From Haloglomus litoreum (GTDB taxonomy: Archaea > Halobacteriota > Halobacteria > Halobacteriales > Haloarculaceae), in assembly GCF_029338515.1 (NCBI RefSeq), contig NZ_CP119988.1:4340001-4404000 (forward strand): a stretch of 64,000 nt of DNA. Direction: 5' to 3'. Below are positions 7,702 through 42,782 of the stretch, piece by piece. The first letter of the stretch is position 1, and each line of letters begins with the position of its first letter. The notes beneath the pieces were generated by a model. It had not been told where the DNA came from and ran no database searches. It saw nothing but the letters and a program-made list of their open reading frames with translations. The position numbers and the translations under genes are program-made.

Positions 7702-7723
7702 GTGCGTTGAGGGGACATGGTTT

Positions 7724-11232: not shown

Positions 11233-11298
11233 CCCCCGACGGGACGGCCACCCCCACCCGACCCGGAGATACAAGTCGGTACTGCGCCTCCGGCCGGT

Positions 11299-21158: not shown

Positions 21159-21221
21159 AGCCGACAGTAGCTGTCCCATGGATACCGACGGCGAGGGACG
21201 GGGCAGAGATAAATCTATTCG

Positions 21222-22618: not shown

Positions 22619-22718
22619 GCCGGCGGTCGGGACAGCGGGGCGGCGCCGGGGAGTGGGGAACAGCCCGTCGGTCGGGGCGCCGAGGAGGAGTCGGGGAGGA
22701 CGAACAGCCCGCCGGGCT

Positions 22719-24662: not shown

Positions 24663-24741
24663 CCTTCCTGGACGCTCACGAGCCGGGACTATAGACCTTG
24701 ACATCCACCCCCCGGCTCGCCCGGTCGACGACCAGAGAGCG

Positions 24742-24761
24742 TTACATCAATACAGCTGTAA
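24742..24761 (+). promoter_or_regulatory. TTACA-N10-TGTAA dyad, module 1, site a
   Basis: TTACATCAATACAGCTGTAA, a 20-bp imperfect palindrome about 80 bp before the SMC-like start. It is one of four sites in the window sharing TTACA, an inner AC and CTGTAA in the same orientation. It is a candidate operator for a dimeric regulator. Confidence 0.55.
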
Positions 24762-24823
24762 AGGCCGTCCAGCAGCGTCGACGCCCGTGTCCGCGAGCCT
24801 CCCGGGCGGCGGCGGCACACCCC

Positions 24824-24843
24824 TTACACGCATACAACTGTAA
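24824..24843 (+). promoter_or_regulatory. TTACA-N10-TGTAA dyad, module 1, site b
   Basis: TTACACGCATACAACTGTAA, two bases from the rdfA-like stop codon and 82 bp (centre to centre) from site a. It has the same orientation and arm spacing as the other three sites. Confidence 0.55.
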
Positions 24844-24845
24844 AG

Positions 24846-25469
24846 TCAGGCCGGCCCACAGTGACATCCGCCCCGCTCGAGGAGTTCGCCGACCCGGTAT
24901 CGGCGACCACAGCCCCGACAGTGCGCCCGGGTCTCGACGATGACGTCCATGTCGCCGACCCTCACCTCGCCCGCGTTCTCGAGCGAGTCGATACCCTGCT
25001 CGGCGACGGCCGTGAGTCGCGTCTCCAGCCGGTTGATCCGATCCCGAACGGTAGGGCCCCGGTCGGCGTCATCGGTCGGCGGTGAGGCGTCACGCCACTT
25101 CGTGAGGTAGGTGTGGATGGACGTATGCGAGACGAACTCCTCGCGGACCGTCGCGGGGTCGAGCCCGTGCTGTTCGAGGCGGGCCTCCGTCTGCCGGCGG
25201 ACACCACTGCTCACGTCGTCCTCGGTGAGGAGCCGGTACATGTTCGTCGCCTCGCCCTCCAGGGGTTCGGCGCCCGCATCCACGAGCTTCGTGGCCAGGA
25301 TACGGACGTTGAACTCGTCGGCGAGCTGCCTGAGGCTCCGCCGGTCCTCCCCGGCCGTCCACGCGCGTTCGAGCTGGGCGCCGTAGTCGCCTAGCTCGTA
25401 CTGGTCGATGAGACGCTGGACCTTGCTCCGCCTCGAAGTCCCGGCAGCGTCGTTCCCCGAATCGCTCAT
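24846..25469 (-). CDS. rdfA: RdfA-like rod-determining factor (first copy)
   Basis: A 207-residue cytoplasmic protein of the haloarchaeal RdfA family. It begins SKVQRLIDQYELGDYGAQLE, has the conserved NMYRLLTEDDVSSGVRRQ segment near residue 80 and FVSHTSIHTYLTKWR near residue 120. It ends in a small zinc-ribbon-like unit with four cysteines (CRGCGRRYRV and CHC). In Haloferax volcanii, RdfA promotes rod shape and is encoded beside an SMC-like gene (from memory of published work). The same arrangement is seen here, with rdfA upstream of the SMC-like gene on one strand. The start at 25469 is set by homology with the copy at 42.8 kb. Confidence 0.82.
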   Translation of the reverse strand: MSDSGNDAAGTSRRSKVQRLIDQYELGDYGAQLERAWTAGEDRRSLRQLADEFNVRILATKLVDAGAEPLEGEATNMYRLLTEDDVSSGVRRQTEARLEQHGLDPATVREEFVSHTSIHTYLTKWRDASPPTDDADRGPTVRDRINRLETRLTAVAEQGIDSLENAGEVRVGDMDVIVETRAHCRGCGRRYRVGELLERGGCHCGPA

Positions 25470-25780
25470 GCGACGGCTACCGACCCGGGACACATAACCC
25501 CTGGTCCTCGCTGCGGCCACCGGTCGGCGTTCGACACGGGGCCATGGGCTGAGACAGGACGGTGTTTGCATAATTCCCTGTAACACATTCCCGGGAGCAC
25601 AAGAGGGATCCGAGGCGAGAGACACCCCATGAGCGAACCCTGGAGCACCGCCGACGCAGTCCCTCCGGAACGCCCACAAGACCCAGATACGGAGCAGATG
25701 CGAGCCTTCCGAGGTTGCGCAGACCTACGGTGACGGTGTCGGTGTGGACCATTCCCCCCCAGAAACCCCGGCCTTTCACC
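25470..25780. other. intergenic region upstream of the first rdfA-like gene
   Basis: No credible gene is seen. It should contain the promoter of the SMC-RdfA module. A half-site CTGTAAC at 25578-25584 resembles one arm of the dyads further downstream, but the matching left arm is absent. Confidence 0.4.
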
Positions 25781-27673: not shown

Positions 27674-28093
27674 TCACACGAACTCAGTCTCGATCTCGGA
27701 GCAGGTCTCGACGAACGTCGTCGCCGCGTCCTGGTACTTGAGGAGGGTGTTCATGCTCCCGTCGAGTTCGAAGTCACCCCCCATGATTCCCTCGATGGCA
27801 CCCATCTCGCCGCGGACGAGCGCCTTCCAGTTCGCGTACGGGCCCGAGAGCTCGAAGCCGTTGTCGACCTCGGCCGGGTTGTCCACCCGGCGGGTCCCGG
27901 TGCAGTCACCGTCCTCCAGGCCGATGAAGTAGTGGTAGGTCTCGGCGAGCCCATCACCGGCCTCGACGGTGAAGATGTAGTCGCCGTTGAAGTCGACCCC
28001 GTACCCCTCGGCCTGCTCGCCGTAGGTCTCGTTCGCATTCAGTCGGTCCTCCAGTTCATCGAACCACTCGTCGCTTGGAAATTGCTTTGCCAT
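27674..28093 (-). CDS. SCP2 sterol-binding domain protein
   Basis: A 139-residue single SCP2-like domain (hydrophobic ligand-binding fold). Typical features are the central YIFTVEAGDGLAETYHYFIG strands, FELSGPYANWKALVRGEM, and GIMGGDFELDGSMNTLLKY near the C-terminus. Such proteins bind lipids or acyl-CoA-like ligands. It is the last gene of a run on this strand with two acyl-CoA ligases and the acetone-carboxylase genes, so it may carry a hydrophobic intermediate. The start MAKQFPSDEWFDELED is preferred over longer, arginine-rich extensions. Confidence 0.78.
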   Translation of the reverse strand: MAKQFPSDEWFDELEDRLNANETYGEQAEGYGVDFNGDYIFTVEAGDGLAETYHYFIGLEDGDCTGTRRVDNPAEVDNGFELSGPYANWKALVRGEMGAIEGIMGGDFELDGSMNTLLKYQDAATTFVETCSEIETEFV

Positions 28094-28202
28094 GTGGCAT
28101 TCACCGCCATGCCAGAGATTGACGGCACCCGACAAAAACCTTGGTGTGTGGACACGTGGCTCGGAGCGACGCGGGGGACGGTGTACGGTCGACGGCGGCG
28201 CC

Positions 28203-29792
28203 TCACCGCTTGAGCTCGTAGCCACGCTCGCGGTCCCACACGTCCTCGTTGCGCTCGCCCATCAGCTCGTACTTCTTGACGCGCTCGGTCGTCGTCTTCG
28301 GGAGTTCGTCGCGGATGTCGATGAACCGCGGGACCTTGAAGTAGGCCAGCTTGCCGTCGCAGTAGTCCACGATGTCGACCGGGTTCGGGGTCCGGCCCGG
28401 CTTCGCGACGACCACCGCCTTCACCGCCTCGGACCCCCCGTCGACGGGGACGCCGAACACCGCCGCCTCCTTCAGGTCGGGATGGTCGCTGAGGACGCTC
28501 TCGACCTCGTAGGAGGAGATGTTCCCGCCCGGCTGGCGGATGGCGTACGCCTTCCGGTCGACGAAGTAGAAGTAGCCGTCCTCGTCCTTGTAGCCGATGT
28601 CACCGGTGTGGAACCAGAGGTTCTGCCAGGCGTCGACGGTCCCCTCGGGCTGGTTGTGGTAGCCCAGCATGAACGCGTTCGGTTCGAGCGGGCGAACGAC
28701 GATCTCGCCCTCCTCGCCGGGCGGGAGCGGCCGGTCCTCCTCGTCGACGATCTCGATCTCCGTCCAGGGGAGCGGCTTGCCGATGCTACCCCGCCGCGGG
28801 GCATCGATGGGGTTGAGCGCGGCCACCGTCGCCGTCTCGGTGAGCCCGTAGCCCTCGACCAGCTGGACGTCGAAGCGAGGTTCGAACTCGTCGATCACCG
28901 CCGGCGGCGCGTCGGCGCCGATGCCGAACACCGCCGGATTGTCGGCGTCGTCCGGGCGCTCATCGGCGTTGTGGAGGTTGGTGATCATCGTCCCGATGTA
29001 GTTGAACACGGTCGCGTCGTGCCGTCGGATCTGGTCCCAGAACCGCTCGGGGTCGAACTCCGCGGCCAGCGCGAAGTCGCTCGCTGCCAGGATCGACCCC
29101 GTCACGGTCGTCTGCTGGGCGTTGCAGTGCGACAGCGGGAGCGTGGTGAACGCGCGGTGGTCCGACCCCGAGACCGAGGAGACCACCGTGTCGACGAACA
29201 CGCGACCGGTGTTGATGTACGAGTAGTGCGGGAGGATCACCCCCTTCGGCTTCCCGGTGGTCCCGCTCGTGTAGATGATCGACATCGGGTCCGAGCCCCG
29301 CCGAGTCCGGTCCGGCCCGACGGCCCGCTCGCCGTCGAGCAGCGCCGCGAACGGCTCGTACGGGGAGCCCATGGTCGACTCGCCGAGCAGGAACTCCGTC
29401 TCGACCCGCTCGTCGCTCCGGACGGTCTCGTAGTTCCCCCGGGTCGAGTTGTCCAGGATAATCGTCGTCGGCTCGGCGTCGCGGAGGACGTACGCCAGTC
29501 CGTCATCCCGCAGGTCGGTGTTCAGCGGGACCATGACCGCCCCGGCCTTGGCGATGCCGAACCAGGCCGCGAGGTACTCTGGCCGGTTCTCGAGGAAGGT
29601 GCAGACGTGCTCGCCCGGTTCGATCCCCCGGTCGACGAGCGTGTTCGCCACCGCGTTCGAGTCACGGTGGAGGTCCCGGTAGCTGTAGGTCCGGTCCGCG
29701 GTGTGGACCAGCGGTCCGTCACCGATGCTGGCTGCCCGGTCGGCGAGGAGAGAGATGACGGTCTCGTACTCCTCAGTCACGGCTCGACTCAT
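28203..29792 (-). CDS. AMP-dependent acyl-CoA ligase, CaiC-like
   Basis: A 529-residue member of the ANL superfamily. The phosphate loop IIYTSGTTGKPKGV is at about residue 172, EGYGLTET (A5) at about 322, YKDEDGYFYFVDRK (A7-A8) at about 410, and the C-terminal catalytic lysine region TTTERVKKYEL near the end. It activates a carboxylic acid to acyl-AMP and then acyl-CoA. Sequence style resembles carnitine/crotonobetaine-CoA ligases. The start at 29792 (MSRAVTEEYETVISLL) is set by family alignment. It lies between the SCP2 gene and another ligase, all on one strand. Confidence 0.88.
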   Translation of the reverse strand: MSRAVTEEYETVISLLADRAASIGDGPLVHTADRTYSYRDLHRDSNAVANTLVDRGIEPGEHVCTFLENRPEYLAAWFGIAKAGAVMVPLNTDLRDDGLAYVLRDAEPTTIILDNSTRGNYETVRSDERVETEFLLGESTMGSPYEPFAALLDGERAVGPDRTRRGSDPMSIIYTSGTTGKPKGVILPHYSYINTGRVFVDTVVSSVSGSDHRAFTTLPLSHCNAQQTTVTGSILAASDFALAAEFDPERFWDQIRRHDATVFNYIGTMITNLHNADERPDDADNPAVFGIGADAPPAVIDEFEPRFDVQLVEGYGLTETATVAALNPIDAPRRGSIGKPLPWTEIEIVDEEDRPLPPGEEGEIVVRPLEPNAFMLGYHNQPEGTVDAWQNLWFHTGDIGYKDEDGYFYFVDRKAYAIRQPGGNISSYEVESVLSDHPDLKEAAVFGVPVDGGSEAVKAVVVAKPGRTPNPVDIVDYCDGKLAYFKVPRFIDIRDELPKTTTERVKKYELMGERNEDVWDRERGYELKR

Positions 29793-29968
29793 CGGTCCTC
29801 CGGACCCCGGTCGGTCGGAGCGGGTGTCGTCCCCCGTCGGTTCCTGGCATATCCATGGTGCCACACCATACCACGAGTGAAGTTAACGGTTTTCCCCCAG
29901 CCGGCACCGTACGCCGGCGTATGGCCAGTCGACCCCGTTCGCCCGCTGTGAGAGAGGGCCGTCCCGGC

Positions 29969-31588
29969 TCAGTTGATCTCCCGATCCGAATCCTCCCAGA
30001 ACGGCTCCCGGAGCGCCTTCTTGTCGATCTTCCCGTACGGGGTCTGTGGCAGCTCGTCCTGGAACTCGACGTGTTTCGGGCGCTTGTAGTCGGCCAGCTC
30101 CTCGTCGGCGAACGCGTGGATGTCCTCGGCCGTGACGGACTCGTCGTCGGGGACGATGATGGCGGTCACCGCCTCGCCCCACTTCTCGTCGGGCACCCCG
30201 ATGACGGCAACCTGCGACACGCCCGGATGCGTGACCAGCACGTCCTCGACATCGGTGCTATAGACGTTCATCCCGCCGGAGATGATCATGTTGCTCTTCC
30301 GGTCGAGGAGGTAGACGTAGCCGTCCTCGTCGCGCTTGCCCACGTCGCCGGTGTGGACCCAGCCGTCCTCGACCGTCTCGGCGGTCTTCTCCGGTAGTTC
30401 CCAGTACTCGTCCATGACGTACGGCGCGGTCGCCAGGATCTCGCCCTCCGTGCCGGGGGGCTGGCGCTCGCCGGTCTCCGTATCGACGATCTTCACGTCC
30501 GCCATCAACGCCGGCTGACCGGCGGAGCCGAGCCGCTGTTCCTCGCCCTGCTCGATGGCGATGCGGTGCTCCTGTTTCCCGAGGACGGTGATGAGGTTCG
30601 GCACCTCGGTCTGCCCGTAGAACTGCGTGAACACGGTGCCGAACTCGTCGAGCCCCTCGCGGAGTCGGGCCGGCGTCATCGGCGCGGCGCCGTAGACCAG
30701 CGTCTCCAGCGACGACGTGTCCGTCGTCCCCAGGTCCGGGTGGTCCAGCACCGTGTAGATCATCGTCGGGACGAGGAACGTCCAGGTCACGTCGTACTCT
30801 TCGATATCGGCGAGCGCCTGCCCGGGGTCGAACCCGGGCCGGATGACCGACTTCGCCCCGACCAGCAGCGCCGCCCACAGGAACGCCCCCGCCGAGTGGG
30901 GCAGCGGCGTCATCAGGAGCAGCGTGTCGCTCCCCGTCAGGTCCAGCTCGGTGATGTGGGCGTACATGTTCTGCAGGAAGTTGTCGTGTGAGTGGACGAC
31001 GCCCTTCGGGTCACCGGTGGTGCCGCCGGTGTAGAAGTGACCGGACGGGTCCTCGGGGCGAACGGTCACGTCCGGGGCGGTCGTGGTGTCACCCTCGGCC
31101 TCTAGGTCGGCCAGCGACTCGAACCGGTCGTCCTCGGCCTCGATGACGAACCCGCGCTCGACGGTGTCGACGGCGTCGGCCAGCGACGCGAGCGTGTCGA
31201 CGAACTCCGGACCGGCGATGACGGTACCGGCCCCGGAGTCCCGGAGCATGTACTCGAACTCGTCCTCGGTCAGCATATCGTTGAGCGGAAGCTTCACCGC
31301 GCCCGCCTTCAGGAGGGCCAGGTCCGCAATCACGTAGCCGAGACAGTTCGACATCATCAGCGCGACCCGGTCACCGGGTTCGACCCCGCGTGCGACGAGC
31401 GCGTTCGCCACCGCGTTCGACCGCTTGTCGAGTTCGCGGTAGGTGTACTCCTGGCCGTCGACCCTGACGGCCACACGGTCGGCGAACCGGTCGAGGCTGT
31501 CGATCAGCGCGTCGGTGAGTGTCGTCGCCGTACCCGTCTGCTCGATGCTACCCTGACGACTGGTGGTACTGCCGCTTTCGGCCGGCAT
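29969..31588 (-). CDS. AMP-dependent acyl-CoA ligase
   Basis: A 539-residue ANL-superfamily ligase. The P-loop is FYTGGTTGDPKGVV, a Ser-to-Gly variant of the usual TSGTTG. QFYGQTEVPN (A5), DEDGYVYLLDRKSNMIISGG (A7-A8) and PYGKIDKKALRE with the catalytic lysine follow. It lies next to the acetone-carboxylase locus and could activate acetoacetate or a benzoylacetate-like product; that role is inferred from position only. The start MPAESGSTTSRQGSIEQ at 31588 is chosen; the acidic N-terminal tail is short. Confidence 0.87.
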   Translation of the reverse strand: MPAESGSTTSRQGSIEQTGTATTLTDALIDSLDRFADRVAVRVDGQEYTYRELDKRSNAVANALVARGVEPGDRVALMMSNCLGYVIADLALLKAGAVKLPLNDMLTEDEFEYMLRDSGAGTVIAGPEFVDTLASLADAVDTVERGFVIEAEDDRFESLADLEAEGDTTTAPDVTVRPEDPSGHFYTGGTTGDPKGVVHSHDNFLQNMYAHITELDLTGSDTLLLMTPLPHSAGAFLWAALLVGAKSVIRPGFDPGQALADIEEYDVTWTFLVPTMIYTVLDHPDLGTTDTSSLETLVYGAAPMTPARLREGLDEFGTVFTQFYGQTEVPNLITVLGKQEHRIAIEQGEEQRLGSAGQPALMADVKIVDTETGERQPPGTEGEILATAPYVMDEYWELPEKTAETVEDGWVHTGDVGKRDEDGYVYLLDRKSNMIISGGMNVYSTDVEDVLVTHPGVSQVAVIGVPDEKWGEAVTAIIVPDDESVTAEDIHAFADEELADYKRPKHVEFQDELPQTPYGKIDKKALREPFWEDSDREIN

Positions 31589-31675
31589 GCAACCTAATTG
31601 CAGAGCATCTTGTAAAAAGTTACTGTACCGCAAAGGATTCGCCGGAATGCGGGCGGCCGTCGGGCCGTGGTCGGC

Positions 31676-31929
31676 TCGGGAGCGTACCCATCACCGAGAT
31701 CCCAGAACTCGCGGAGCTCGTCGGCCCACTCCTCGCTCGTCTCGAAGACGCCCTCGTACGTTCCACTGGATGCCGTCGTTCCAGTCCCCCTGTACGACGC
31801 CCGCTCGCTCTCGTCGAACATCCCCCGGAGGATCGGCCGTTTCAGCCGATTGGCGGCTCCACATGGTCGAACTCACGTTCGCAGGTGGCCGTTCTCTGGG
31901 TCGTGGAGGTCTGGTCCTGGGTTGCTCAT
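31676..31929 (-). pseudogene. internally deleted remnant of a second acetone-carboxylase alpha gene
   Basis: It starts like the intact gene at 34829 (MSNPGPDLHDPEN against MSKPESELHDPGT) and keeps the PPIG segment. It then jumps, after loss of about 700 codons, to the C-terminal part: GDWNDGIQW, then in another frame YEGVFETSEEWADELREFW and DLGDGYAP. The intact C-terminus reads YEGVFETSEEWAQDFREFW. Stops and frameshifts make it non-functional. Just upstream, CTACCACC...CAATGAGCAA also copies the end of an acxA-like gene, so a whole second operon was probably lost. Confidence 0.82.
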
Positions 31930-32009
31930 TGGCTGATGGTGTGGGGTGGTAGCTGCTGGGGGGGACGCCGCCCGCCGTCAGGGCGCGACGAGGGCGGCAG
32001 AAGGAGGCG

Positions 32010-32531
32010 TCAGTCCGCGGCCTGGTCGCCCTCGCGGTCCGGGGCAGGCCGACCCTGCCACTCCTCGTAGAAGGTGTCGATGTCCGGTTCGAACGGCGTG
32101 AGCACCGGATAGCCGACCGGCACCGCGTCCACGTCGAGGAGCTGGTAGCACTCCGGGCAGTACCACTCCCGGAGCTCGAACGCCCAGTCCGGGTCGACGT
32201 GCATGTACTCCTCGTAGAGCTCCTCGAACTCGTCCTCGTCCTCCCGGACGAAGACCTGACAGGAGCGCTTCCAGTTCTCGCCGGCGTCACAGAGGTCCTC
32301 GCCGCAGTCGGTCCTGATGACGCGGCCCTCGTCGGTCCCGACCACGTACAGGTGGTCGTTCAGCGGGACGAGGATGGGGTCGTCCCAGTCGACCCGCTCC
32401 TGCAGCACCGCTCGGGTCTTCTCGAAGCGGTCGGGGTCCTTCGGGTCCGGGAGCACCTCGTTGCGCAGCTCGTTCCAGGACAGCTCGCCGTCGATGAGCG
32501 ATTCCACACGTGCTTGTTCCAGATCAGTCAT
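32010..32531 (-). CDS. acxC: acetone carboxylase gamma subunit
   Basis: A 173-residue protein matching the small gamma subunit of acetone carboxylase (about 165-180 residues). A cysteine-rich zinc-binding layout is visible: TDCGEDLCD near residue 85, KRSC, and WYCPECYQLLDVD near residue 130. The start at 32531 is supported by a GGTGAT Shine-Dalgarno-like sequence five bases upstream. The gene follows the alpha subunit by nine bases, giving the order beta-alpha-gamma as in Xanthobacter acxABC. The complex turns acetone plus bicarbonate into acetoacetate at the cost of ATP; another ketone substrate is possible. Confidence 0.85.
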   Translation of the reverse strand: MTDLEQARVESLIDGELSWNELRNEVLPDPKDPDRFEKTRAVLQERVDWDDPILVPLNDHLYVVGTDEGRVIRTDCGEDLCDAGENWKRSCQVFVREDEDEFEELYEEYMHVDPDWAFELREWYCPECYQLLDVDAVPVGYPVLTPFEPDIDTFYEEWQGRPAPDREGDQAAD

Positions 32532-32540
32532 TGGTATCAC

Positions 32541-34829
32541 CTAGGGGGAGTAGCCGTCGCTGAGGTCCCAGAACTCGCGGAAGTCCTGGGCCCACTCCTC
32601 GCTCGTCTCGAAGACGCCCTCGTACATGTACTGGACGCCGTCGTTCCAGTCGCCCTTCCGCACGCGGGCCCGCTCCTCATCGAAGAACTCCTCGAACGAC
32701 TGGGTCCGCTCGGCGCGCTCCTCGCGGATCTCCTCGCGCCGCTCGGCCGTGGCCGGGCGATCGACCGTGAACTCGCGGTTCTCCGCGTCGTACTCGCCGA
32801 CCACGCCGTACACCTCCTCGACCACGTCCGGCGTGAAGATGTCCTCCTCGATGTCCTCCTTCACCTTCTCGAGCGGCCGATCGAGCGGGTCACCCCAGCC
32901 CGGACCGCCGCTGGTCTGGTAGCGGAGCAGGTCGTAGTTCTCGAACTGCTCCGGGAAGAACATCCCGTCCTGATCGCGGATGATCTCCTCGGCCTCGATC
33001 TGCTCCTCGATCCGGCCGTGGTGGGGCATGTCGTCGAGCGGGTACGGCTCGTCCGTGACGGTCCGCCTGGCCAGGTCCGTGTCGTGTGCGCGCACGGAGT
33101 AGCTCGTCCCGCCGGGGTAGCCGCCGGACATGCCGGCGCCCGACCACGTCACCGTCGGGATGCTGAGCGCGTACAGCGAGACGTCCTCGCTGCCCATGAT
33201 CGTGTGGAGCCCCTCCCAGCCGGAGCCGCCACGGTACTTGCCGTGCCCCGCCGTGTTGGGCTTGACCCGCCGGGCCAGCTGGATGAGGCCCCACTGGGTC
33301 TGCTCCCACTCCTCGACGTCGCCCAGGTCGGCCTCCGGGTTGAACATCGCGTACCCGTAATCGAGGCCGTCCCGGACCGCCGAGGCGCCGAGCCCCTGAC
33401 ACGAGAAGTCGAACGGTCCCACCGGCCAGTAGTCACCCAGCGCGTCCGGGATGGCGTCGGCCAGCGAGTCCATCAGCTTCCCCCCGCCCTGCAGCGCGTC
33501 GCAGGGCTCCCCGTAGCCCGTGACGACCTCCTCGCGGAACCCCCGCGAGAAGAAGCCGCTGGAGAGTGCCCGCGACACGGCCAGGTAGGTGGGGAAGATC
33601 GTCAGCCACGGAGTGTGGTACGACAGCTCGGGGTCCTGCGGGTTCACCACCGTCCCCTCCGGGTAGTTGGTGTCCACCGCGTAGTGGGCCCCGTCGTTGA
33701 CCTTCCCGTCGTGGAGGATGGACTGGGTGAGATACACCCAGAGGGCGCCCTCCATCGAGCCCTTCGCGCAGTTGAACGGGTGCGGGCCGGGTGGGGTGGC
33801 ACCCTCCATGTCCAGCTCCATCCCGCCCTCCCCGTCGATGGTCATCTCGATGGGGAGGTGGTTCATCATGTTCTGCTGGGCCCCGGGCTGCCAGGCCTTG
33901 TCCTCCCACTGGATCGGGTGGAAGCCGGCCTCGCGGTACGTCCCGGGGAACATCCGCTCTTTGACCCGGGACTCCATGATCTGGCGGCCTTCCTCGACGG
34001 CCTCGTAGAGGAAGTCCTTGAACAGCTCGACGCCGACCTCGTCGATCATCTCGTGGATCGCCTCGCGGATCATGTGGCACCCCGCGAGCCGACACTTCTC
34101 GTCGAGGTCCCAGTACATCGGGGTGCGGACACCCCGCTGGCCGCGGTCACGCCAGTCCTGGTACAGCTTGTCGTCCTCACCGATCTTCTCACACGTCGCG
34201 TACAGCCCGTCCTCGTGACGGTTCGTGGACGCGACCTGGTCGTGGCCGCGGGTCATCCCACCGATGTCGATTTCGTGGGTGACACCGTCGGCCCACGCGA
34301 CGAGTTCGTCGTCGTAGAAGATGGGGACGAAGGTGTGGACGTCCGTGGTGTGGACGTTGCCGAGGTCGTTGTCGTTGTTGCAGAAGACGTCCCCCGGCTG
34401 GATGCCGCGGTTGTGCTCGTAGTCCTGCTCGATCATGTACTTGATCGCGAGCGAGCCGGTGTGGACGTGGACGATGATGCCCGTCGACACCGCAACGGAG
34501 TCGCCCTCGGGCGTGTAGATCTGGAAGCACAGCTCCCCGATCTCGCGGACGATGGGTGACGCCGAGACGTGCAGGGCGGTCTCGCGGGCCGAGACCAGCG
34601 CGCCCCGGAGCCGCGAGTACATCTGCTCGTACTTGAACGGGTCGTTCTCCTTGAGCTCGAGTTCGTCGAGGCCCTGGTAGCGCCCGGTCTCCTCGAGGCG
34701 CTGTTCGCCCTCGTCGAGCATCTCCTGGAGGGTCTGGCCGTCCCAGCCGATTGGCGGGTCGACCTTCTCCAGCTCGCGTTCGCGGGTGGTCGTTCCTGGG
34801 TCGTGGAGTTCTGATTCGGGTTTGCTCAT
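32541..34829 (-). CDS. acxB: acetone carboxylase alpha subunit (hydantoinase B family)
   Basis: A 762-residue HyuB-family protein, the length of acetone carboxylase alpha. Family landmarks include NNDNDLGNVHTTDVHTFVPI near residue 150, GVTHEIDIGGMTRGH, GPHPFNCAKGSMEGAL, KYRGGSGWEGLHTI and a C-terminal FETSEEWAQDFREFW. In the characterised enzyme this subunit carries the metal and the carboxylation site. The start overlaps the stop of the beta-subunit gene (ATGA, 34826-34829), and a gamma-subunit gene follows. The presence of gamma and the long alpha separate it from ordinary hydantoinases/oxoprolinases. Confidence 0.88.
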   Translation of the reverse strand: MSKPESELHDPGTTTRERELEKVDPPIGWDGQTLQEMLDEGEQRLEETGRYQGLDELELKENDPFKYEQMYSRLRGALVSARETALHVSASPIVREIGELCFQIYTPEGDSVAVSTGIIVHVHTGSLAIKYMIEQDYEHNRGIQPGDVFCNNDNDLGNVHTTDVHTFVPIFYDDELVAWADGVTHEIDIGGMTRGHDQVASTNRHEDGLYATCEKIGEDDKLYQDWRDRGQRGVRTPMYWDLDEKCRLAGCHMIREAIHEMIDEVGVELFKDFLYEAVEEGRQIMESRVKERMFPGTYREAGFHPIQWEDKAWQPGAQQNMMNHLPIEMTIDGEGGMELDMEGATPPGPHPFNCAKGSMEGALWVYLTQSILHDGKVNDGAHYAVDTNYPEGTVVNPQDPELSYHTPWLTIFPTYLAVSRALSSGFFSRGFREEVVTGYGEPCDALQGGGKLMDSLADAIPDALGDYWPVGPFDFSCQGLGASAVRDGLDYGYAMFNPEADLGDVEEWEQTQWGLIQLARRVKPNTAGHGKYRGGSGWEGLHTIMGSEDVSLYALSIPTVTWSGAGMSGGYPGGTSYSVRAHDTDLARRTVTDEPYPLDDMPHHGRIEEQIEAEEIIRDQDGMFFPEQFENYDLLRYQTSGGPGWGDPLDRPLEKVKEDIEEDIFTPDVVEEVYGVVGEYDAENREFTVDRPATAERREEIREERAERTQSFEEFFDEERARVRKGDWNDGVQYMYEGVFETSEEWAQDFREFWDLSDGYSP

Positions 34830-36991
34830 TGGTCTGGTGGTGACAGGTGGTAGATGCGGTTGTTGTCGAGCGATGCCTCCCAGCCTGGCGGGACCAGCAT
34901 CGTCGTCGCCGGGGCCTCCGTGACCGCCGGCCCCTCGATGACGTTACCGGCCTGGATGTGATTCATGTTCCAGATGTCCGCGTCGTGCCAGTCGCCCTCC
35001 CAGTAGATGGCCCGCTCGTTCTTGTGAGCCTGCTCCGGCGGCGTGTCGGCCGACACCGGCTCCTCGTCGGGGAGTTCGGGCTTGGTCGAGGGGGCGACCC
35101 CCGTACCGATGGCGACGGTGAACTGGTAGCCGTTCTCGGGCGAGCGAGCCGCACGCTGGAACACGCGACCGAACTCGTCCTCGAACCGCTCGATGACCTG
35201 TTCGATGTCCTCGCCGTCCAAGCCCCCGTCCCAGAAGTCCTCGATCTGGACCTCCAGGTCGTCGAGCATGCCGGTGTACTGGGCGCGGATGGCCGGCCGG
35301 AACTCCATGACGTCGGAGTCGATGCCGTCGCGCTCGAAGGCGTCGGCCGCCTTCTCCCGCACCTTGTGGAACACCCCGGTCAGCGTGTCGGCCACGTCGT
35401 CGGCGTTGCTGAAGTCGGGCTGGAGGATGACGTCGACGGACTGGTCGTACCGGTAGGCGGAGTCGGCGCAGGCGGTGCCGAACGCCGAGAACGCCGCCGC
35501 CCAGTCCGGGACGAGGATGTCCTTGAAGTTCAGCGGCTTGGTGTAGCCGGCCGCGTGGAGCGGGCCGCCGCCACCGTAGCTGATGAGGTTGTAGTTCTCC
35601 GGCGAGTAGCCCAGCCCGTGGACCATCGAGCGGAGCTCGTTGGCCATGTCGCGCTCGACGATGTTGAGCACACCACGGGCCGTCTCGACGGGGTCCTCGC
35701 CGAGGTTGCTGGCGAGCTGCTCGTCGATGGCCTCGCGGGCCGCGTCGACATCGATGGGGATGTCACCGCCGAGGAAGAAGTCGGGGTTGATGTACCCCAG
35801 CAGCGCCGTGCAGTCCGTCACGGTGGGGGTCTCGACGTCAGCGTCTTCGTTGGCGACGCCGACGAGGTAGCCCGCCGAGTCCGGCCCGACCTCGATCCGG
35901 TCGGAGGCGCGGTCGACACGGAGGTACGACCCGGTTCCCGAGCCGATGGAGTCCAGCGCCGTCATCGGGATGTTGGTCGGGATCTGCGCCAGGGTCTGGT
36001 CCCAGCGTGTCGGGTAGTGCCCCTCGGTGATGAGGGCCACGTCGAAGCTGGTGCCCCCGACGTCCGAGCAGACCAGGTTGTCGATGCCGAGCTTGTCGGT
36101 CATGAACTCGCCGCCGAACACCCCGCCGATGGGGCCCGACAGCATCGTCTCGGCCAGCCAGTCGTGGTCCGGCGCGATGGTCCCACCGGACGAGGTCAGG
36201 ACCCGGAACGGCGAGTCCAGCCCCTCCTCCTGCAGGGTGTCCTCGATGTTGTAGAGCTGCTCGCGCGACGGCTCCACGGCGTAGGCTTCGAGGATGAGCG
36301 TGTTCAGTCGCGGGGTCTCGCCCCGGACCGGGTTCTGCTCGCTCGAGAGCCAGACCGGCGTGTCGTCGTTGCGCTCGTCCTTGATCTCCTCGGCGATCTC
36401 CTTGATCTTCTGCTCGTGCTCCTGGTTCGCGTAGGAGAAGATCGTGCAGACGGCGATGACCCGGACATCCCGGTCGAGCAGGTCGTGGACGGCCTCGCGG
36501 ATCTCGTCCTCGTAGATGCTGATGATCGGGACGCCCAGCATGTTGACGCGCTCGCGGACCCCCTTGATGTTCTCCCGGGGGACGAGCGGTTCGGGGTGTT
36601 CGTGCTCCCGGGCGTGGAGCCGCCCCGCGTACGACAGGTCCGCCCAACTGGCGATGCCCCGACCCATCCGGTGGTGGTCCTCGAAGCCGGCGGTCGTGAT
36701 GACGCCGATATCCCCCTCACCCTCACGCTCGAGAAGCCGGTTGAGCATCGCCGTTCCGGCGTAGACGACGCCGTCGAGCGAGGCGGCACTCTCGCTGAAC
36801 GAGGTGCCCCAGTAACCCAACCCGTTGTCGAACGAGTTCTTGACGCCGACCGACTCGTCGTCCGGCGTCGTCTGTGCCTTTCCGACCGTGTAGTTCGCCT
36901 CCTCGTCGACGATGAACGAGTCCGTCATGGTACCGCCCGTGTCGAGGGCGAGGAGACGCGGTTCGTGTTCTGACTGGTCTTCGGTGCTCAT
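34826..36991 (-). CDS. acxA: acetone carboxylase beta subunit (hydantoinase A family)
   Basis: A 721-residue HyuA/oxoprolinase-family subunit. The N-terminal ATP/phosphate loop LALDTGGTMTDSFI is at residues 14-27, and further family motifs are LVCSDVGGTSFDVALI near residue 310 and NLISYGGGGPLHAAGY near residue 475. This subunit phosphorylates the ketone and bicarbonate in the acetone/acetophenone carboxylase mechanism. It is the first gene of the acxABC operon. A TTTAAAAT element about 90 bp upstream may be its promoter, giving a leader of about 60 nt. Confidence 0.88.
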   Translation of the reverse strand: MSTEDQSEHEPRLLALDTGGTMTDSFIVDEEANYTVGKAQTTPDDESVGVKNSFDNGLGYWGTSFSESAASLDGVVYAGTAMLNRLLEREGEGDIGVITTAGFEDHHRMGRGIASWADLSYAGRLHAREHEHPEPLVPRENIKGVRERVNMLGVPIISIYEDEIREAVHDLLDRDVRVIAVCTIFSYANQEHEQKIKEIAEEIKDERNDDTPVWLSSEQNPVRGETPRLNTLILEAYAVEPSREQLYNIEDTLQEEGLDSPFRVLTSSGGTIAPDHDWLAETMLSGPIGGVFGGEFMTDKLGIDNLVCSDVGGTSFDVALITEGHYPTRWDQTLAQIPTNIPMTALDSIGSGTGSYLRVDRASDRIEVGPDSAGYLVGVANEDADVETPTVTDCTALLGYINPDFFLGGDIPIDVDAAREAIDEQLASNLGEDPVETARGVLNIVERDMANELRSMVHGLGYSPENYNLISYGGGGPLHAAGYTKPLNFKDILVPDWAAAFSAFGTACADSAYRYDQSVDVILQPDFSNADDVADTLTGVFHKVREKAADAFERDGIDSDVMEFRPAIRAQYTGMLDDLEVQIEDFWDGGLDGEDIEQVIERFEDEFGRVFQRAARSPENGYQFTVAIGTGVAPSTKPELPDEEPVSADTPPEQAHKNERAIYWEGDWHDADIWNMNHIQAGNVIEGPAVTEAPATTMLVPPGWEASLDNNRIYHLSPPDQ

Positions 36992-37216: not shown

Positions 37217-37714
37217 CTATCCCATCACCAGCTCGCCGTACGATCCCCCGAGGATGAGCCCGAACAGGACGAACCCGACGAGGAGCGACCCGTCTAGGTA
37301 CGGGAAGACGACGACGGGAGCCAGCATCGGGACGAGGAGGACACCCACGCCGAAGCCGACGGCGAGGCCGTAGACGAGCCCCATCGCGGTGGTGACGACG
37401 AGCGCCATGCCGAACCGGGCGGTCAGCGGGAGGACGAGGTTCTTCGCTGCCTCGGACCGGGTCGTCAGCTGCAGGACGCTCGCGATGTACCCGTCGATGT
37501 ACCGCGTGACGATGCCGGCGAAGACGACGCCGAGGATCGCACTGAGGAACAGCAGCGCGACCCAGCCCCCCACGAGCGACGGCGTGTCGGCCAGGTACAT
37601 CCGCCCCATGGCGGGCATCATCGGCGTGGTCAGCTGGACGATGACTCCCAGCACGATGCCGCCGAACAGCGACCCCACGACTGCAGCTCGGAGTTCCTCG
37701 GCGTCAGGTGCCAT
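37217..37714 (-). CDS. small integral membrane protein
   Basis: A 165-residue protein with four strongly hydrophobic segments (about residues 10-30, 48-70, 98-122 and 128-155). Glycines and prolines inside the helices give a channel-like look (GSLFGGIVLGVIV, VVTTAMGLVYGLAVGFGVG). No family is recognised and there are no charged catalytic residues. It is transcribed towards the acetone-carboxylase operon, 225 bp upstream of acxA. A role in solute or gas passage is possible, but only position suggests it. Confidence 0.7.
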   Translation of the reverse strand: MAPDAEELRAAVVGSLFGGIVLGVIVQLTTPMMPAMGRMYLADTPSLVGGWVALLFLSAILGVVFAGIVTRYIDGYIASVLQLTTRSEAAKNLVLPLTARFGMALVVTTAMGLVYGLAVGFGVGVLLVPMLAPVVVFPYLDGSLLVGFVLFGLILGGSYGELVMG

Positions 37715-38535: not shown

Positions 38536-39306
38536 TCAGCCGTGCCGTTCGGCGTACTGGTCGGCCAGGTCGGCGGCGGCCAGCGTCACCACGTCCGGGA
38601 GCTCCGTCTCGAAGTACTCCTCGTCGACCTGGTTCGACGTGCCCGAGACGCTGATGGCGCCGAGCACCTCCCCCCGGTAGTGGACCGGCGCGGCCACCGA
38701 CTGGACACCGAGCGCGACCTCGTGTTCGCTGGTGGCGTACCCCCGCCGGCGGATCGCCGACAGCTCCTCGAACAGCGTCTCCTCGTCGGTGATGGTGTGT
38801 TCCGTGCGGGCGGGGAGCCCGTAGCTGTCCAGGATGTCCCGGATCCGGCTGTCCGGGAGGTGTGCGAGGATGGCCTTGCCGGAGGCCGGGCCGTGGAGGT
38901 CGGTCCGCTTGCTGACGCGCCCGTAGGTCCGGACGGCATCGTTGCTGACGACCCGGTCGAGGTAGACGGCCCGGCCGTGCTCCTCGACGACGAGCCAGGC
39001 GACGAGCGAGGTCTCCTCGGCCAGCGCGGTGAGCGTCCCGTCGGCGAGCCCCGAGAGCGGCACCGCGTTGCGCGCGGCCGTCCCGTGGTAGAGGAACTTC
39101 AGACTCAGGTGGTACCGTCCGCCCTCGTTGACGAGGTACTCGAGCGACTCCAGCGTGGCCAGGTAGCCGTGGATGGTGCTCTTCGCGAGGTCCAGCTGAT
39201 CGGCCAGCTCGCCCAGCTCGGCGCCGTCCTGCTCGTGGATGTACTCGATGATCTCGAACGCGGTTCGAGCCGACTTCACCATCCGGCCGGGCTCGGTTAG
39301 TGCCAT
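38536..39306 (-). CDS. IclR family transcriptional regulator (second copy)
   Basis: A 256-residue IclR protein. The winged helix is at residues about 10-70 (LGELADQLDLAKSTIHGYLATLESLEYLV), and the effector domain shows LHGPASGKAILAHLP and SVAAPVHYRGEVLGAISVSG. It is clearly related to the copy at 21.8 kb (both have the LAKSTIHGYL/MAKSTVHGYL recognition helix and the SGKAILAHLPD pattern). It probably senses an organic acid and controls acetone-carboxylase or ligase genes on its right or left. The start at 39306 is chosen because it matches the copy at 21.8 kb in length. Confidence 0.9.
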   Translation of the reverse strand: MALTEPGRMVKSARTAFEIIEYIHEQDGAELGELADQLDLAKSTIHGYLATLESLEYLVNEGGRYHLSLKFLYHGTAARNAVPLSGLADGTLTALAEETSLVAWLVVEEHGRAVYLDRVVSNDAVRTYGRVSKRTDLHGPASGKAILAHLPDSRIRDILDSYGLPARTEHTITDEETLFEELSAIRRRGYATSEHEVALGVQSVAAPVHYRGEVLGAISVSGTSNQVDEEYFETELPDVVTLAAADLADQYAERHG

Positions 39307-39976
39307 GGTAGCTCTCACGAGCGCCGCGTTATTATCGCTTCGGTCATTTAAATAGGGGCCGGCAAGGAACGGCTCCGTGGCTTCCGAGCATCGTGAACAT
39401 CACCATTTATACTCATGTTCGACGAATGCGAGTAATTGCCATCCATGACTCAAAGTATCAGACTGCACATACGTGCGCCCCGAGGAACGATTTGAGACTA
39501 CCGAACGGCTCCGAGCAGACCGAGGGGCGGGTAACTCCGGAACATTTCGTGTGATCGCTGACCGCGCGACTCCATCCCGGGCCGCGAGTCGACTGTGTAG
39601 AACGACGGAGAATCGATTATGGTCGAATACCACTCAATTATATTCACATACGCCGAAAGTTTCGAGCCCTGCTACAGTATGATATACCCAGCTGTTCTGC
39701 AGATATCGAAAACGGATATCCCGAATCGTGTCCGGAAACAGGTACTCGTTCGATAAAGTAGAATCCGAGCTCGTCGAGCCGGCGCAGATTCCTGGCCAGA
39801 TTCCAGTCTCTCGAATCGACTTTCTCACGCCCGTTCGCACCGGGAATCAAGCAGCTTACGTCGGGGAGCTATCCGCAACCCGGGACGGACCGGGCCGGTC
39901 GTGGGCACGGATCGCCGCCGTGGACGAGACCTACCGCCCACTTCGGGCACGCGTCCCCGGAACTCGACCACACCTC
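39307..39976. other. intergenic region between the second IclR and the SMC-like gene
   Basis: About 670 bp with clearly lower GC than the surroundings. The first 60 bp hold the A/T-rich promoter area of the IclR gene (TTATTATCGCTTCGGTCATTTAAATAG). No ORF with family or codon support is found; a minus-strand stretch reading NLARNLRRLDELGFYFIE is the only protein-like fragment and is not recognised. Confidence 0.4.
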
Positions 39977-39977
39977 T

Positions 39978-39997
39978 TTACACCAGTACTTCTGTAA
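39978..39997 (+). promoter_or_regulatory. TTACA-N10-TGTAA dyad, module 2, site a
   Basis: TTACACCAGTACTTCTGTAA, extendable by one pair to TTTACA...TGTAAA. It lies about 75 bp past the SMC-like stop, in the same orientation as the sites of module 1. Confidence 0.55.
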
Positions 39998-40006
39998 ACC
40001 GTTGCT

Positions 40007-40026
40007 TTACACAGAGACGCCTGTAA
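40007..40026 (+). promoter_or_regulatory. TTACA-N10-TGTAA dyad, module 2, site b
   Basis: TTACACAGAGACGCCTGTAA, 29 bp (centre to centre) from site a, about 45 bp from the SMC-like stop codon, same orientation. The pair could bind a dimer on nearly the same face of the helix. Confidence 0.55.
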
Positions 40027-40069
40027 ATCTCGGTCGTGGAGGAGGACAGTCGCCATCGCGGGGAGTCGG

Positions 40070-42016
40070 TCAGGGGGGGCTGTTGAACTCCGCGGGGGCG
40101 ACCCGTGCGTAGGAGTCCGACAGCGCGTCCGCGTCCTCCGGGAGGAGGGCGACGACGAGATACGCGGCGAACTCCGAGAAGTACGAGACCAGCTCCGCGA
40201 TGCGCTCGGCGTCGATGGCCTCGAGCGAATCGAGCACGATGAACGGAACCGTCTCGTGGACCTCGTGGGCGAGATAGCCCGACAGCGCGACGACGAGCCC
40301 GATGACCTCCCGTTCGCTCTCACTCAGGTTTCCGACAACGTCCTCGTACACCGTCCCGCCCTCGTCCTCACGGACGACGTGGAGCTCGAAGGTCGTCTCG
40401 GCCCCCCGGCCGGTGCCGCTTCGGCGCTCGATCCAGACGCGCGCGATGTTGCTGAACTGGAGGATGCCGAGGATGTCCGCCATCCGCTCGTTGAACTCCT
40501 CGACGACCGCTGCCTCCAGATCCGTGATGTGCGAGCGCTGAGCCTCGAGCTCCTCGGTCACCTCGTCGATGCGGGCCTCGAGCTCGGCCGGCTCGGGGAG
40601 GGACTCGACCTCGGCGATCTCGTCGCGGAGGTCGTCCCGTTCCTGTTCGAGCTGGCCGCGCTCGTACTGCAGGTCGCTCAGCTCCTCGTACGCCTCCAGC
40701 AGGTCGTTCTCCCGGAGCGCCTCGGTCTCGGCGGCCCGGACCTCCAGCTCCTGGATGGTCTCGCGGAGTTCCTCGGCCGTCGACTCCAGCTCCGCGAGCC
40801 GCTCGGTGCGTTGCTCGATCTTCTCCTCGGTGCGCTCGAGGTCGCGTTCGAGCGTCGAGCGGCGCCGTGCCTGCTCCTGCACCGACTCGATGCGTTCCTC
40901 GAACTCGTCGATGCGGCGCCGGACCGACTCGCGCTCCTCGCGTTTCGCCTCGACGACCGACTCCAGATCCGCCAGCCGCTCGTCGATGGCCCCCCGCTCG
41001 ACACGGCTCCCGCAGGTCCAGCAGACCACGTCCCGTTCGGCCTCCGGAGCCAGCGCCGCGGTCACGTCCCCCTCGTCCGCCTCGATGGAGCGGAGGTCGT
41101 GTTCCTCGCCGGAGAGGACATCGCGGTTGAACTCGACGATGGTCGTCAGGCTGGATATCTCGCCGTCGAGCTCCCGCTTTCGCTGTCGAGCCTCCGAGAG
41201 CTGCGCCTCCAGGTCCGACTCGTCCTCCTCGGCCTCGTCGGGCAGCGCCGCACGCTCCTCCCGGAGGTCCGCCAGCTCCGCCTCCAGTGCGGTTCGCTCG
41301 GACTCGACCAGCTCGATCTCGTCCTCGGTCTGGCTCAGCTGCTGGCGGCGGCGGTCCAGCTCGTCGACCAGCTCGTTGGCCTCCTCGGCCGCGTCGGCGT
41401 CCTCCTCGAACTCGGCGACCGTCTCCCGGAGCTCCTCGATGGCCTCGTCGATCTCCGCGATCCGCTCGTCGATCTCCGCCCGACGCTGCTCCAGTTCGGG
41501 CAGCTCGTTGCGGCGCTCGACCACACGGCTCCGCTCGGTCTTCAGCTCCTCACGCTCCGACTGGAGGTCGCGGATCCGCCGCTCGATGGCGGCGGTGTCG
41601 ACCGGCCCCATGACGAGGTCGTGCAGGTCCTCACCGCCCGTCACGGCCCGCCGGACCTCGTTGTCCCCGAACAGCGAGACGAAGAGATCGATCAGCTCGG
41701 GGGCGTCGCTGAACGGTTCCCCACCGGTGCTGACGCCCGAGGCCGTCCGGATGTACGTCCGGGTGTACTCCTCGTCGCCGATGGTCAGGGAGACCTGCCC
41801 CTCGTCGGCGTTGCTCCGGAGGGTCGCCTCGGACCCACCCAGTACCCCGTTGATGGCCTGCAGGAGCGAGGTCCGGTTGGTGGCGTTGTAGCCGGTGAGG
41901 ACCGTCACACCGGGCGAGAACGACACCTCCGCACGGTCGATGCCCCCGATGTTCGATGCGGTCAGGGCCGCGGGTCCGGTGGCCGACTCGCTGCTCACGT
42001 TCGCCCCGTCACTCAT
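40070..42016 (-). CDS. archaea-specific SMC-related protein (second copy)
   Basis: A 648-residue paralog of the protein at 22.7 kb with the same plan: N-terminal ATPase lobe, coiled coil, CWTCGS zinc hook near residue 330, coiled coil, C-terminal lobe. The P-loop is G42-Y-N-A-T-N-R-T-S, again without Gly-Lys. The signature-like LSESEREVIGL is present, and the Walker B region reads FIVLDSLEAID, again Ser for the catalytic Glu. The coiled-coil sequences differ strongly while the motifs agree, so this is an old duplication, not a recent copy. An RdfA-like gene lies upstream on the same strand. Confidence 0.85.
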   Translation of the reverse strand: MSDGANVSSESATGPAALTASNIGGIDRAEVSFSPGVTVLTGYNATNRTSLLQAINGVLGGSEATLRSNADEGQVSLTIGDEEYTRTYIRTASGVSTGGEPFSDAPELIDLFVSLFGDNEVRRAVTGGEDLHDLVMGPVDTAAIERRIRDLQSEREELKTERSRVVERRNELPELEQRRAEIDERIAEIDEAIEELRETVAEFEEDADAAEEANELVDELDRRRQQLSQTEDEIELVESERTALEAELADLREERAALPDEAEEDESDLEAQLSEARQRKRELDGEISSLTTIVEFNRDVLSGEEHDLRSIEADEGDVTAALAPEAERDVVCWTCGSRVERGAIDERLADLESVVEAKREERESVRRRIDEFEERIESVQEQARRRSTLERDLERTEEKIEQRTERLAELESTAEELRETIQELEVRAAETEALRENDLLEAYEELSDLQYERGQLEQERDDLRDEIAEVESLPEPAELEARIDEVTEELEAQRSHITDLEAAVVEEFNERMADILGILQFSNIARVWIERRSGTGRGAETTFELHVVREDEGGTVYEDVVGNLSESEREVIGLVVALSGYLAHEVHETVPFIVLDSLEAIDAERIAELVSYFSEFAAYLVVALLPEDADALSDSYARVAPAEFNSPP

Positions 42017-42140
42017 TGTTGCGGTGTGGCCGCCCGGCGTATTTATATTCGGTGGTTCCCGTCATCGACCGGTCGGAACGACCCCCATCGGGGCCATACA
42101 GGTGCGCCGCACCGCCGGTACCCGTCCCGAGTCGGAGGCG

Positions 42141-42782
42141 TCAGTCCGACTGCCCCGTCACCGGGCAGTCACACGCGCGTTCCGCGAGAAGCTCGTCGGG
42201 TCGGTAGCTCGACCCGCAGTCGGTGCAGGTGACCTGGATCGTCACGGAGAGTTCGAGCGGCCCGGTGGTCAGCAGTCCGGCGTTCCGCAACCGCTCCAGG
42301 GTCTGCTCGACGACGCTGGCACAGCGGTTCCGCGCCCACTCGATGGTGTCCCGGCCGTCGTCGAGGGTGATGGAGGCCTCGCGCGAGGTGTCCACCGCCA
42401 GGCACTCGTTCAGGTGGGTCCGCATCGTGGTGTGGGTGACCCAGTCGGACTGCACCTCGTCGATGTCGACGCCCTGCTGGGTCAGCCGCGTCCGGACACG
42501 AGCGACCCGTTCGGTGGGCGTGTCGTCGGCGGCGAGGACGTCGTACAGCACGCCGACGGCGTCGTCATCGTCCACGGCGCCGTAGAGCGCGTCGCTCAGG
42601 TCGACCGCGGCCGCGTCGAGTGCGGCCTCCAGGATCCGCCGGTTGGTGTAGTCGGCCAGGTCGCGCAGGCTCGCGTCCGACTCGTTGCGCCGGCCGACCA
42701 GTTCCGCGTCGAGCCCGCCCAGCCCGTAGCTCTCGATGCTCCGGCCGACCTTGCAGGAGCAGGAATCCGTCGGTTCGGACAT
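42141..42782 (-). CDS. rdfA: RdfA-like rod-determining factor (second copy)
   Basis: A 213-residue RdfA-family protein: CKVGRSIESYGLGGLDAELV at the start, YTNRRILEAALDAAAVDL, WVTHTTMRTHLNECL near residue 125, and a C-terminal cysteine unit CTDCGSSYRPDELL and CDC. It diverges from the copy at 24.8 kb (which has LTEDDVSSGVRR; here it reads LAADDTPTERVAR), so it may have a different partner or role. It lies 124 bp upstream of the second SMC-like gene on the same strand. Assignment rests on the shared domain pattern and gene order. Confidence 0.78.
   Translation of the reverse strand: MSEPTDSCSCKVGRSIESYGLGGLDAELVGRRNESDASLRDLADYTNRRILEAALDAAAVDLSDALYGAVDDDDAVGVLYDVLAADDTPTERVARVRTRLTQQGVDIDEVQSDWVTHTTMRTHLNECLAVDTSREASITLDDGRDTIEWARNRCASVVEQTLERLRNAGLLTTGPLELSVTIQVTCTDCGSSYRPDELLAERACDCPVTGQSD

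What the first reader, a model, noticed from the sequence alone, without database searches (positions are those of the whole stretch)
32010..36991. Complete acetone-carboxylase-type operon (acxABC order) in a haloarchaeon
Beta, alpha and gamma subunits have full length (721, 762, 173 residues), overlapping genes and the same order as bacterial acxABC. The gamma-type subunit with its cysteines is what separates it from hydantoinases. Nearby acyl-CoA ligases could convert the carboxylation product to its CoA ester, and a short-chain fatty-acid transporter lies elsewhere in the window. This indicates growth on acetone, isopropanol or a related ketone, or removal of ketones.
Basis: partly seen in the sequence, partly recalled or inferred. 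Interest (0 to 1): 0.62.

Follow-up and report, generated by a model that had tools for sequence, protein, structure and literature searches.

The report
Haloarchaeal acetone-carboxylase-type ketone carboxylase operon
A salt-loving archaeon carries an intact three-gene operon for an enzyme of the acetone carboxylase family, which would let it use small ketones by attaching CO2; it is a real but untested archaeal member of a known bacterial enzyme family, from a branch in which I found no biochemically studied member.

Summary
On the minus strand lie beta (34826-36991, 721 aa), alpha (32541-34829, 762 aa) and gamma (32010-32540, 176 aa, or 173 from an inner ATG), in acxABC order, with a 4-bp overlap and a 0-bp gap. 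All three match Xanthobacter acetone carboxylase far better than acetophenone carboxylase or hydantoinases. Mn ligands are conserved and dN/dS is 0.06-0.12. So the operon encodes an acetone-carboxylase-type ketone carboxylase.

(1) The genome has a second such operon, and haloarchaea hold two separate lineages: one groups with Xanthobacter-type enzymes, the window's with Dehalococcoidia/Desulfarculaceae/Archaeoglobus sequences (one haloarchaeal clade rejected, AU p=0.0004). (2) Three of four Trp near the Mn site and one gamma Zn-Cys are replaced, so substrate and metal cannot be transferred safely from Xanthobacter. (3) A decayed second alpha gene lies between gamma and the ligase; it is intact in Haloglomus halophilum. 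(4) The ligase next to gamma forms one clade shared by both haloarchaeal lineages and probably activates the 3-oxoacid product, as CoA-transferase presumably does beside a bacterial acx operon.

Acetone is plausible but unproven. New member of a known kind.

The parts
34826..36991 (-). acxA-type gene: beta subunit (HyuA-like), 721 aa; ATP-binding subunit
   Evidence: Pfam Hydant_A_N/Hydantoinase_A/Hydant_A_C; 646 bits to 5svb_B acetone carboxylase beta; GGTMTD motif and Phe405 kept; dN/dS 0.056 against Haloglomus halophilum
32541..34829 (-). acxB-type gene: alpha subunit (HyuB-like), 762 aa; metal-site subunit
   Evidence: Pfam Hydantoinase_B; 572 bits to 5m45_A; Mn ligands equivalent to Xanthobacter E89/H150/D153/H175 kept in all 99 sequences aligned; dN/dS 0.12
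32010..32540 (-). acxC-type gene: gamma subunit, 176 aa (173 aa from the ATG at 32531)
   Evidence: Pfam Acetone_carb_G 1e-33; 138 bits to 5svb_C; Zn-ligand Cys74 of Xanthobacter is Thr, the other three Cys and Cys81 kept
31640..32010 (-). pseudogene remnant of a second alpha subunit (acxB2): the first ~40 and last ~45 codons survive, with about 2.03 kb missing between, an in-frame stop and frameshifts
   Evidence: blastn 78% identity over both ends to the intact alpha2 of Haloglomus halophilum (L036 12433-14724), E 1e-31 and 3e-41; translations
29969..31633 (-). AMP-forming acyl-CoA ligase 1 (probable ATG start at 31588, ~540 aa); likely activates the 3-oxoacid product
   Evidence: Pfam AMP-binding and AMP-binding_C; the gamma-adjacent ligases of both haloarchaeal lineages form one clade, 51-93% identity to this one, while the next paralogue in the genome is ~40%
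28203..29864 (-). AMP-forming acyl-CoA ligase 2, a distant paralogue (33% to ligase 1), conserved in the closest relatives
   Evidence: Pfam; 75-81% identity to the same position in Haloglomus and Halorientalis
27674..28225 (-). SCP2-like small protein at the end of the conserved block; role unknown
   Evidence: Pfam SCP2 4.9e-5; same place in two Haloglomus genomes
37217..37714 (-). 165-aa hydrophobic protein directly upstream of beta, conserved in Haloglomus; role unknown
   Evidence: same position in L036 and L037; no Pfam or NCBIfam match; hydrophobic by inspection
38536..39318 (-). IclR-family regulator, candidate regulator of the operon
   Evidence: Pfam IclR_C and HTH_IclR; 76% identity to the IclR upstream of the acx operon in Halorientalis (L040 6092-6994)

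Best explanation
The operon encodes an (alpha beta gamma)2 ATP-dependent, metal-dependent, biotin-free ketone carboxylase of the acetone carboxylase family. Shown here: intact genes, order, family, metal ligands, nucleotide-site residue, purifying selection, conserved ligase partner. Inferred from Xanthobacter: ATP bound in the HyuA-like beta subunit phosphorylates the enolate of a small ketone and then bicarbonate; the two intermediates travel through an internal channel, opened by a Glu89-type carboxylate switch, to a divalent metal (Mn or Fe) held by His-Asp-His in the alpha subunit, where they join into a 3-oxoacid (acetoacetate from acetone). Gamma is a structural zinc-ribbon subunit. The adjacent AMP-forming ligase would make the 3-oxoacyl-CoA, which genome-encoded thiolases split to acetyl-CoA. 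The substrate is most likely acetone or another short aliphatic ketone such as butanone. An IclR regulator probably controls the operon.
For: Best structural relatives of all three subunits are acetone carboxylases by a wide margin. Published criteria for the Acx branch (gene order, lengths, phylogeny; PMC5214803) are met. Mn ligands are E/H/D/H in 99 of 99 sequences (ligands from PMC5543143). Nucleotide-site Phe405 and GGTMTD are kept. dN/dS is 0.06-0.12. The ligase next to gamma is one clade in both haloarchaeal lineages and lies within ~100 bp of gamma in most loci. A bacterial acx operon has CoA-transferase genes in that place, and the window genome has only one marginal CoA_trans hit but three thiolases over cut-off.
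Against: The lineage is outside the clade of Xanthobacter, Cereibacter and Cupriavidus sequences. The Mn-site aromatic patch is W-Y-A-F instead of four Trp, and gamma lost one Zn Cys. No isopropanol dehydrogenase or other ketone-forming gene is conserved beside it. Two genomes hold this lineage and the Xanthobacter-like one intact, so the substrates may differ. A ligase of the same clade (51%) occurs in one genome (G144) without acx nearby. The closest bacterial relatives were not checked for a ligase in the same place.
Confidence: 0.62

Rival explanations
1. It is a carboxylase of the same fold and chemistry, but its physiological substrate is another ketone (longer, branched or functionalised), with a wider pocket and possibly Fe(II) instead of Mn(II).
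For: Separate lineage. Trp408, Trp438 and Trp479 of the Mn-site patch become Tyr, Ala and Phe, and this patch has been proposed as a metal selectivity filter (PMC10865871). It coexists with the Xanthobacter-like lineage in two genomes. A second, different ligase follows in the operon.
Against: First-shell metal ligands and nucleotide-site Phe are unchanged. Patch residues are variable across the branches outside the Xanthobacter group, none of which has a substrate known to me. The proposal that the patch selects the metal is untested.
Confidence: 0.27
2. The genes encode an ATP-dependent hydrolase (hydantoinase, oxoprolinase or lactamase) that happens to carry a gamma subunit.
For: HyuA and HyuB domains are shared with these enzymes.
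Against: Oxoprolinase and hydantoinase score far lower with beta and alpha. The lengths and the gamma gene fit Acx, not Hyd. In the alpha tree the genome's own HyuB proteins and ApcD fall outside the Acx clade, though on very long branches.
Confidence: 0.04
3. The operon is decaying or non-functional; the alpha2 pseudogene is the first sign of loss.
For: The second alpha gene is reduced to its two ends with a stop and frameshifts.
Against: The three core genes are intact with dN/dS 0.06-0.12. Close Halorientalis operons have only one alpha gene, so alpha2 is dispensable.
Confidence: 0.05

Closest known systems
Acetone carboxylase AcxABC of Xanthobacter autotrophicus Py2 (PDB 5SVB, 5SVC, 5M45)
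   Same: Three subunits with similar sizes and the same gene order; same Mn ligands (E89, H150, D153, H175), nucleotide-site Phe405 and GGTMTD motif; about 43% identity in beta and 41% in gamma; alpha 39% identical to the Ancylobacter and Cereibacter counterparts.
   Different: Separate branch of the tree; three of four Trp of the Mn-site patch replaced; Zn Cys74 is Thr; AMP-forming ligase beside it, where a plasmid operon of the same bacterial family (Ancylobacter) has CoA-transferase genes; IclR regulator instead of sigma-54 regulator; remnant of a second alpha gene.
Haloarchaeal Xanthobacter-like acx operons (Natrinema, Natronorubrum, Halovenus, Halococcus and others)
   Same: Gene order beta-alpha-gamma, followed in most by a ligase of the same clade; a second alpha gene also occurs.
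   Different: Only ~43-45% identical in alpha; group with Xanthobacter, not with the window (AU p=0.0004 against one clade); keep all four Trp and all Zn Cys; different neighbours (HTH_10 regulator, VOC protein).
Acetophenone carboxylase ApcABCDE of Aromatoleum aromaticum (PDB 5L9W)
   Same: HyuA, HyuB and gamma-type subunits; the Apc operon also carries a CoA ligase for its product (benzoylacetate-CoA ligase, PMC5214803).
   Different: Apc has an additional alpha' subunit and an epsilon subunit, absent here; much lower scores (365/129/41 bits against 646/572/138).
5-oxoprolinase / N-methylhydantoinase / caprolactamase (HyuAB)
   Same: Shared HyuA and HyuB folds.
   Different: No gamma subunit, shorter HyuB, far lower scores.

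Membership tests
Acetone carboxylase (Acx) branch | Three contiguous genes in the order acxA-acxB-acxC (criterion 1 of PMC5214803) | tested here: met
Acetone carboxylase (Acx) branch | Phylogenetic placement with Acx, not Apc or Hyd (criterion 2) | tested here: met
   alpha tree with Apc and Hyu outgroups (outgroup branches very long); alpha and beta trees within the family; score margins
Acetone carboxylase (Acx) branch | Subunit lengths: HyuB-like and HyuA-like subunits of ~720 aa or more, gamma with ~50 extra N-terminal residues (criterion 3) | tested here: met
   762, 721 and 173-176 aa; the gamma Pfam domain starts at residue 50
Acetone carboxylase (Acx) branch | Mn/Fe ligands Glu89, His150, Asp153, His175 in alpha | tested here: met
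   conserved in the window and all 99 alpha sequences
Acetone carboxylase (Acx) branch | Four-Cys Zn site of gamma (Cys74, 76, 124, 127) | tested here: inconclusive
   Cys74 is Thr; Cys76, 124 and 127 kept, and Cys81 could serve as a fourth ligand. Some other branches of the family lack most of these Cys, so the site is not strictly defining
Acetone carboxylase (Acx) branch | ATP-dependent carboxylation of acetone by bicarbonate | not testable with these tools
   needs enzyme assay
Xanthobacter-type (biochemically studied) acetone carboxylase clade | Placement in the clade of Xanthobacter/Ancylobacter, Cereibacter and Cupriavidus sequences | tested here: not met
   groups with Dehalococcoidia, Desulfarculaceae, Archaeoglobus and Kyrpidia sequences, 100/99; beta tree also apart
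Xanthobacter-type (biochemically studied) acetone carboxylase clade | Aromatic patch Trp401, 408, 438, 479 near the Mn site | tested here: not met
   Trp, Tyr, Ala, Phe in the window and its closest relatives
Acetophenone carboxylase (Apc) | Additional alpha' subunit gene and epsilon gene, order apcABCD(E) | tested here: not met
   no second HyuA-like gene in or beside the operon and a different gene order
Hydantoinase/oxoprolinase (Hyd) | Two genes only, no gamma, short HyuB | tested here: not met
   gamma present, alpha 762 aa

The most novel reading that the evidence does not exclude
The window represents a second, haloarchaeal lineage of ketone carboxylases whose preferred ketone and/or catalytic metal differs from that of Xanthobacter acetone carboxylase, coupled to its own AMP-forming 3-oxoacid-CoA ligase, and in its closest relatives with two alternative catalytic alpha subunits sharing one beta and one gamma.
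Probability: 0.27. Interest if true: 0.55.

Novelty: new member of a known kind. Interest (0 to 1): 0.38.

Why it matters
I found no paper on an acetone carboxylase in haloarchaea in the held library, though gamma subunits are named so in public annotation. If active, it would add biotin-free ketone carboxylation to haloarchaeal carbon metabolism. The two haloarchaeal lineages, with and without the Trp patch, make a natural test of the proposal that this patch decides between Mn and Fe.

Tried and rejected
Hydantoinase/oxoprolinase and acetophenone carboxylase readings: rejected on scores, gene content and trees. A single haloarchaeal origin of acx: rejected. A succinyl-CoA:acetoacetate CoA-transferase as partner: only one marginal CoA_trans hit in the genome (28 bits). 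The branched-chain-type ABC transporter next to the operon in Haloglomus halophilum as a clue to the substrate: not found beside the window operon or in Halorientalis. Sigma-70 and terminator scans were no better than shuffles, as expected for an archaeon; a TTTAAA box about 90 nt upstream of beta was seen by eye only. The first dN/dS figure for ligase 1 used a wrong frame and is discarded. One Pfam call with a mis-framed locus failed. Structure prediction was not run, since identity to solved structures already fixes the fold.

Full report
Observation. Pfam gives HyuA domains, HyuB and Acetone_carb_G. phmmer against all PDB sequences gives Xanthobacter acetone carboxylase first for every subunit (646, 572, 138 bits), well ahead of acetophenone carboxylase (365, 129, 41) and 5-oxoprolinase (243 for beta, 41 for alpha). 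No acetone-carboxylase model of NCBIfam appears among the matches; its Apc and caprolactamase models match far below their cut-offs.

Family membership. The published criteria for telling Acx from Apc and Hyd are gene order, phylogeny and subunit length (PMC5214803); all are met. The Mn ligands of the Xanthobacter enzyme (E89, H150, D153, H175; PMC5543143) are present in the window and in all 99 alpha sequences collected. Beta keeps the GGTMTD motif and Phe405; Ser391 is Thr, as in many relatives. In gamma, Cys74 of the four Zn ligands is Thr; the other three and Cys81 remain. Loss of Cys74 recurs in the closest relatives (Ala or Thr), and a few bacterial members lack most of these Cys, so this does not exclude membership; a shifted Zn site using Cys81 is possible but untested.

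Phylogeny. Haloarchaea hold two separate acx lineages. One (Natrinema, Natronorubrum, Halovenus and others) groups with Xanthobacter, Cupriavidus, Cereibacter and two Bacillota MAGs (100/100). The window's lineage groups with Dehalococcoidia, Desulfarculaceae, Archaeoglobus and Kyrpidia sequences (100/99). Holding all haloarchaea as one clade is rejected, p-AU 0.0004. A beta tree also keeps the two lineages apart, though the window lineage's bacterial neighbours there are arranged differently. Long branches are present and the deeper order is unsure. The window genome itself has two operons of its lineage (alpha 64-66% identical to each other). Genomes G078 and G098 hold both lineages intact, and G101 has the Xanthobacter-like alpha only in broken pieces.

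Active-site differences. In Xanthobacter an aromatic patch near the metal (Trp401, 408, 438, 479) was proposed as a filter between Mn and Fe (PMC10865871). The Xanthobacter-like haloarchaeal lineage keeps all four. The window and its closest relatives have Trp, Tyr, Ala, Phe. Other bacterial branches vary too, so the change marks the lineage but does not by itself name a substrate.

Second alpha gene. In Haloglomus halophilum and one further genome of the same genus, gamma is followed by a second intact alpha gene, 763 aa, with all Mn ligands. In the window the same place holds only its first ~40 and last ~45 codons, 78% identical in DNA, with about 2.03 kb missing between them, a stop and frameshifts. 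The Halorientalis operons of this lineage have one alpha gene. The Xanthobacter-like haloarchaeal lineage often has a second alpha gene too, 1.4-4.3 kb downstream of gamma. Its role is unknown.

Partner enzymes. Ligase 1 belongs to a clade that contains the gamma-adjacent ligases of both haloarchaeal lineages (51-93% identity, mostly within ~100 bp of gamma, same strand), while its next paralogue in the genome is ~40% identical. In a sample of 39 relatives, members over 50% identity occurred in acx genomes and in one genome without acx nearby (G144). The subclade of the genome's second operon lacks the ligase. In an Ancylobacter plasmid the position after acxC holds CoA-transferase A and B. 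Ligase 1 is therefore the likely activator of the 3-oxoacid; its substrate is inferred. Ligase 2 is only 33% identical to ligase 1 and is conserved in the closest relatives. The IclR regulator at 38536-39318 is 76% identical to the one upstream of a Halorientalis operon.

Distribution and selection. Alpha homologues occur in 23 of 146 genomes of the family and beta homologues in 21 of 391 of the class sample. dN/dS against Haloglomus halophilum is 0.056 (beta), 0.12 (alpha), 0.12 (gamma), so the core genes are under purifying selection.

Verdict. A real, intact, acetone-carboxylase-type operon; the enzyme class is secure (about 0.95 by my judgement), the acetone substrate is not. Interest is moderate: a known kind of enzyme in a branch and a habitat where I found no studied member.

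Noticed in passing
L005 (genome 4290000-4303000), HyuB-gamma ORF within 6929-11281 minus, protein from MSSSEDIDL, ~722 aa: A HyuB-type subunit fused at its C-terminus to an Acetone_carb_G-like zinc-ribbon domain (1e-8), next to a HyuA-type gene, about 40 kb upstream of the window's start. A candidate third ketone carboxylase or Apc-like enzyme of this genome.
   Followed up: partly
window 21848-25679 and 38536-42782: Two modules of IclR regulator, archaea-specific SMC-related protein (ASRP) and rod-determining factor RdfA flank the operon on both sides; copies are 32-46% identical, so not a recent duplication. ASRP and RdfA also lie beside the acx operon in Halorientalis.
   Followed up: partly
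L049-L054, L104, L107, L118, L139, L140: haloarchaeal Xanthobacter-like acx loci: A second alpha gene lies 1.4-4.3 kb downstream of gamma in most loci of this lineage, with a Bat/HTH_10 regulator and a ~132-aa unknown protein between.
   Followed up: partly
L086, L089, L092, L099 and other Actinomycetota loci: Alpha ORFs of 930-1160 aa without a separate gamma ORF, suggesting alpha-gamma fusions in Solirubrobacterales and kin.
   Followed up: no
window 2002-3348, 14017-15546, 16412-17788: Three MmgE/PrpD-family genes within 16 kb, with an acetyl-CoA hydrolase/transferase-family gene (17833-19293) and an acyl-CoA dehydrogenase (19968-21179): a catabolic region.
   Followed up: no
L084, L085, L093, L094 gamma genes: Bacterial gamma subunits in which most of the Zn-site Cys are replaced (SW..DS pattern), so the zinc seems not to be needed throughout the family.
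   Followed up: no
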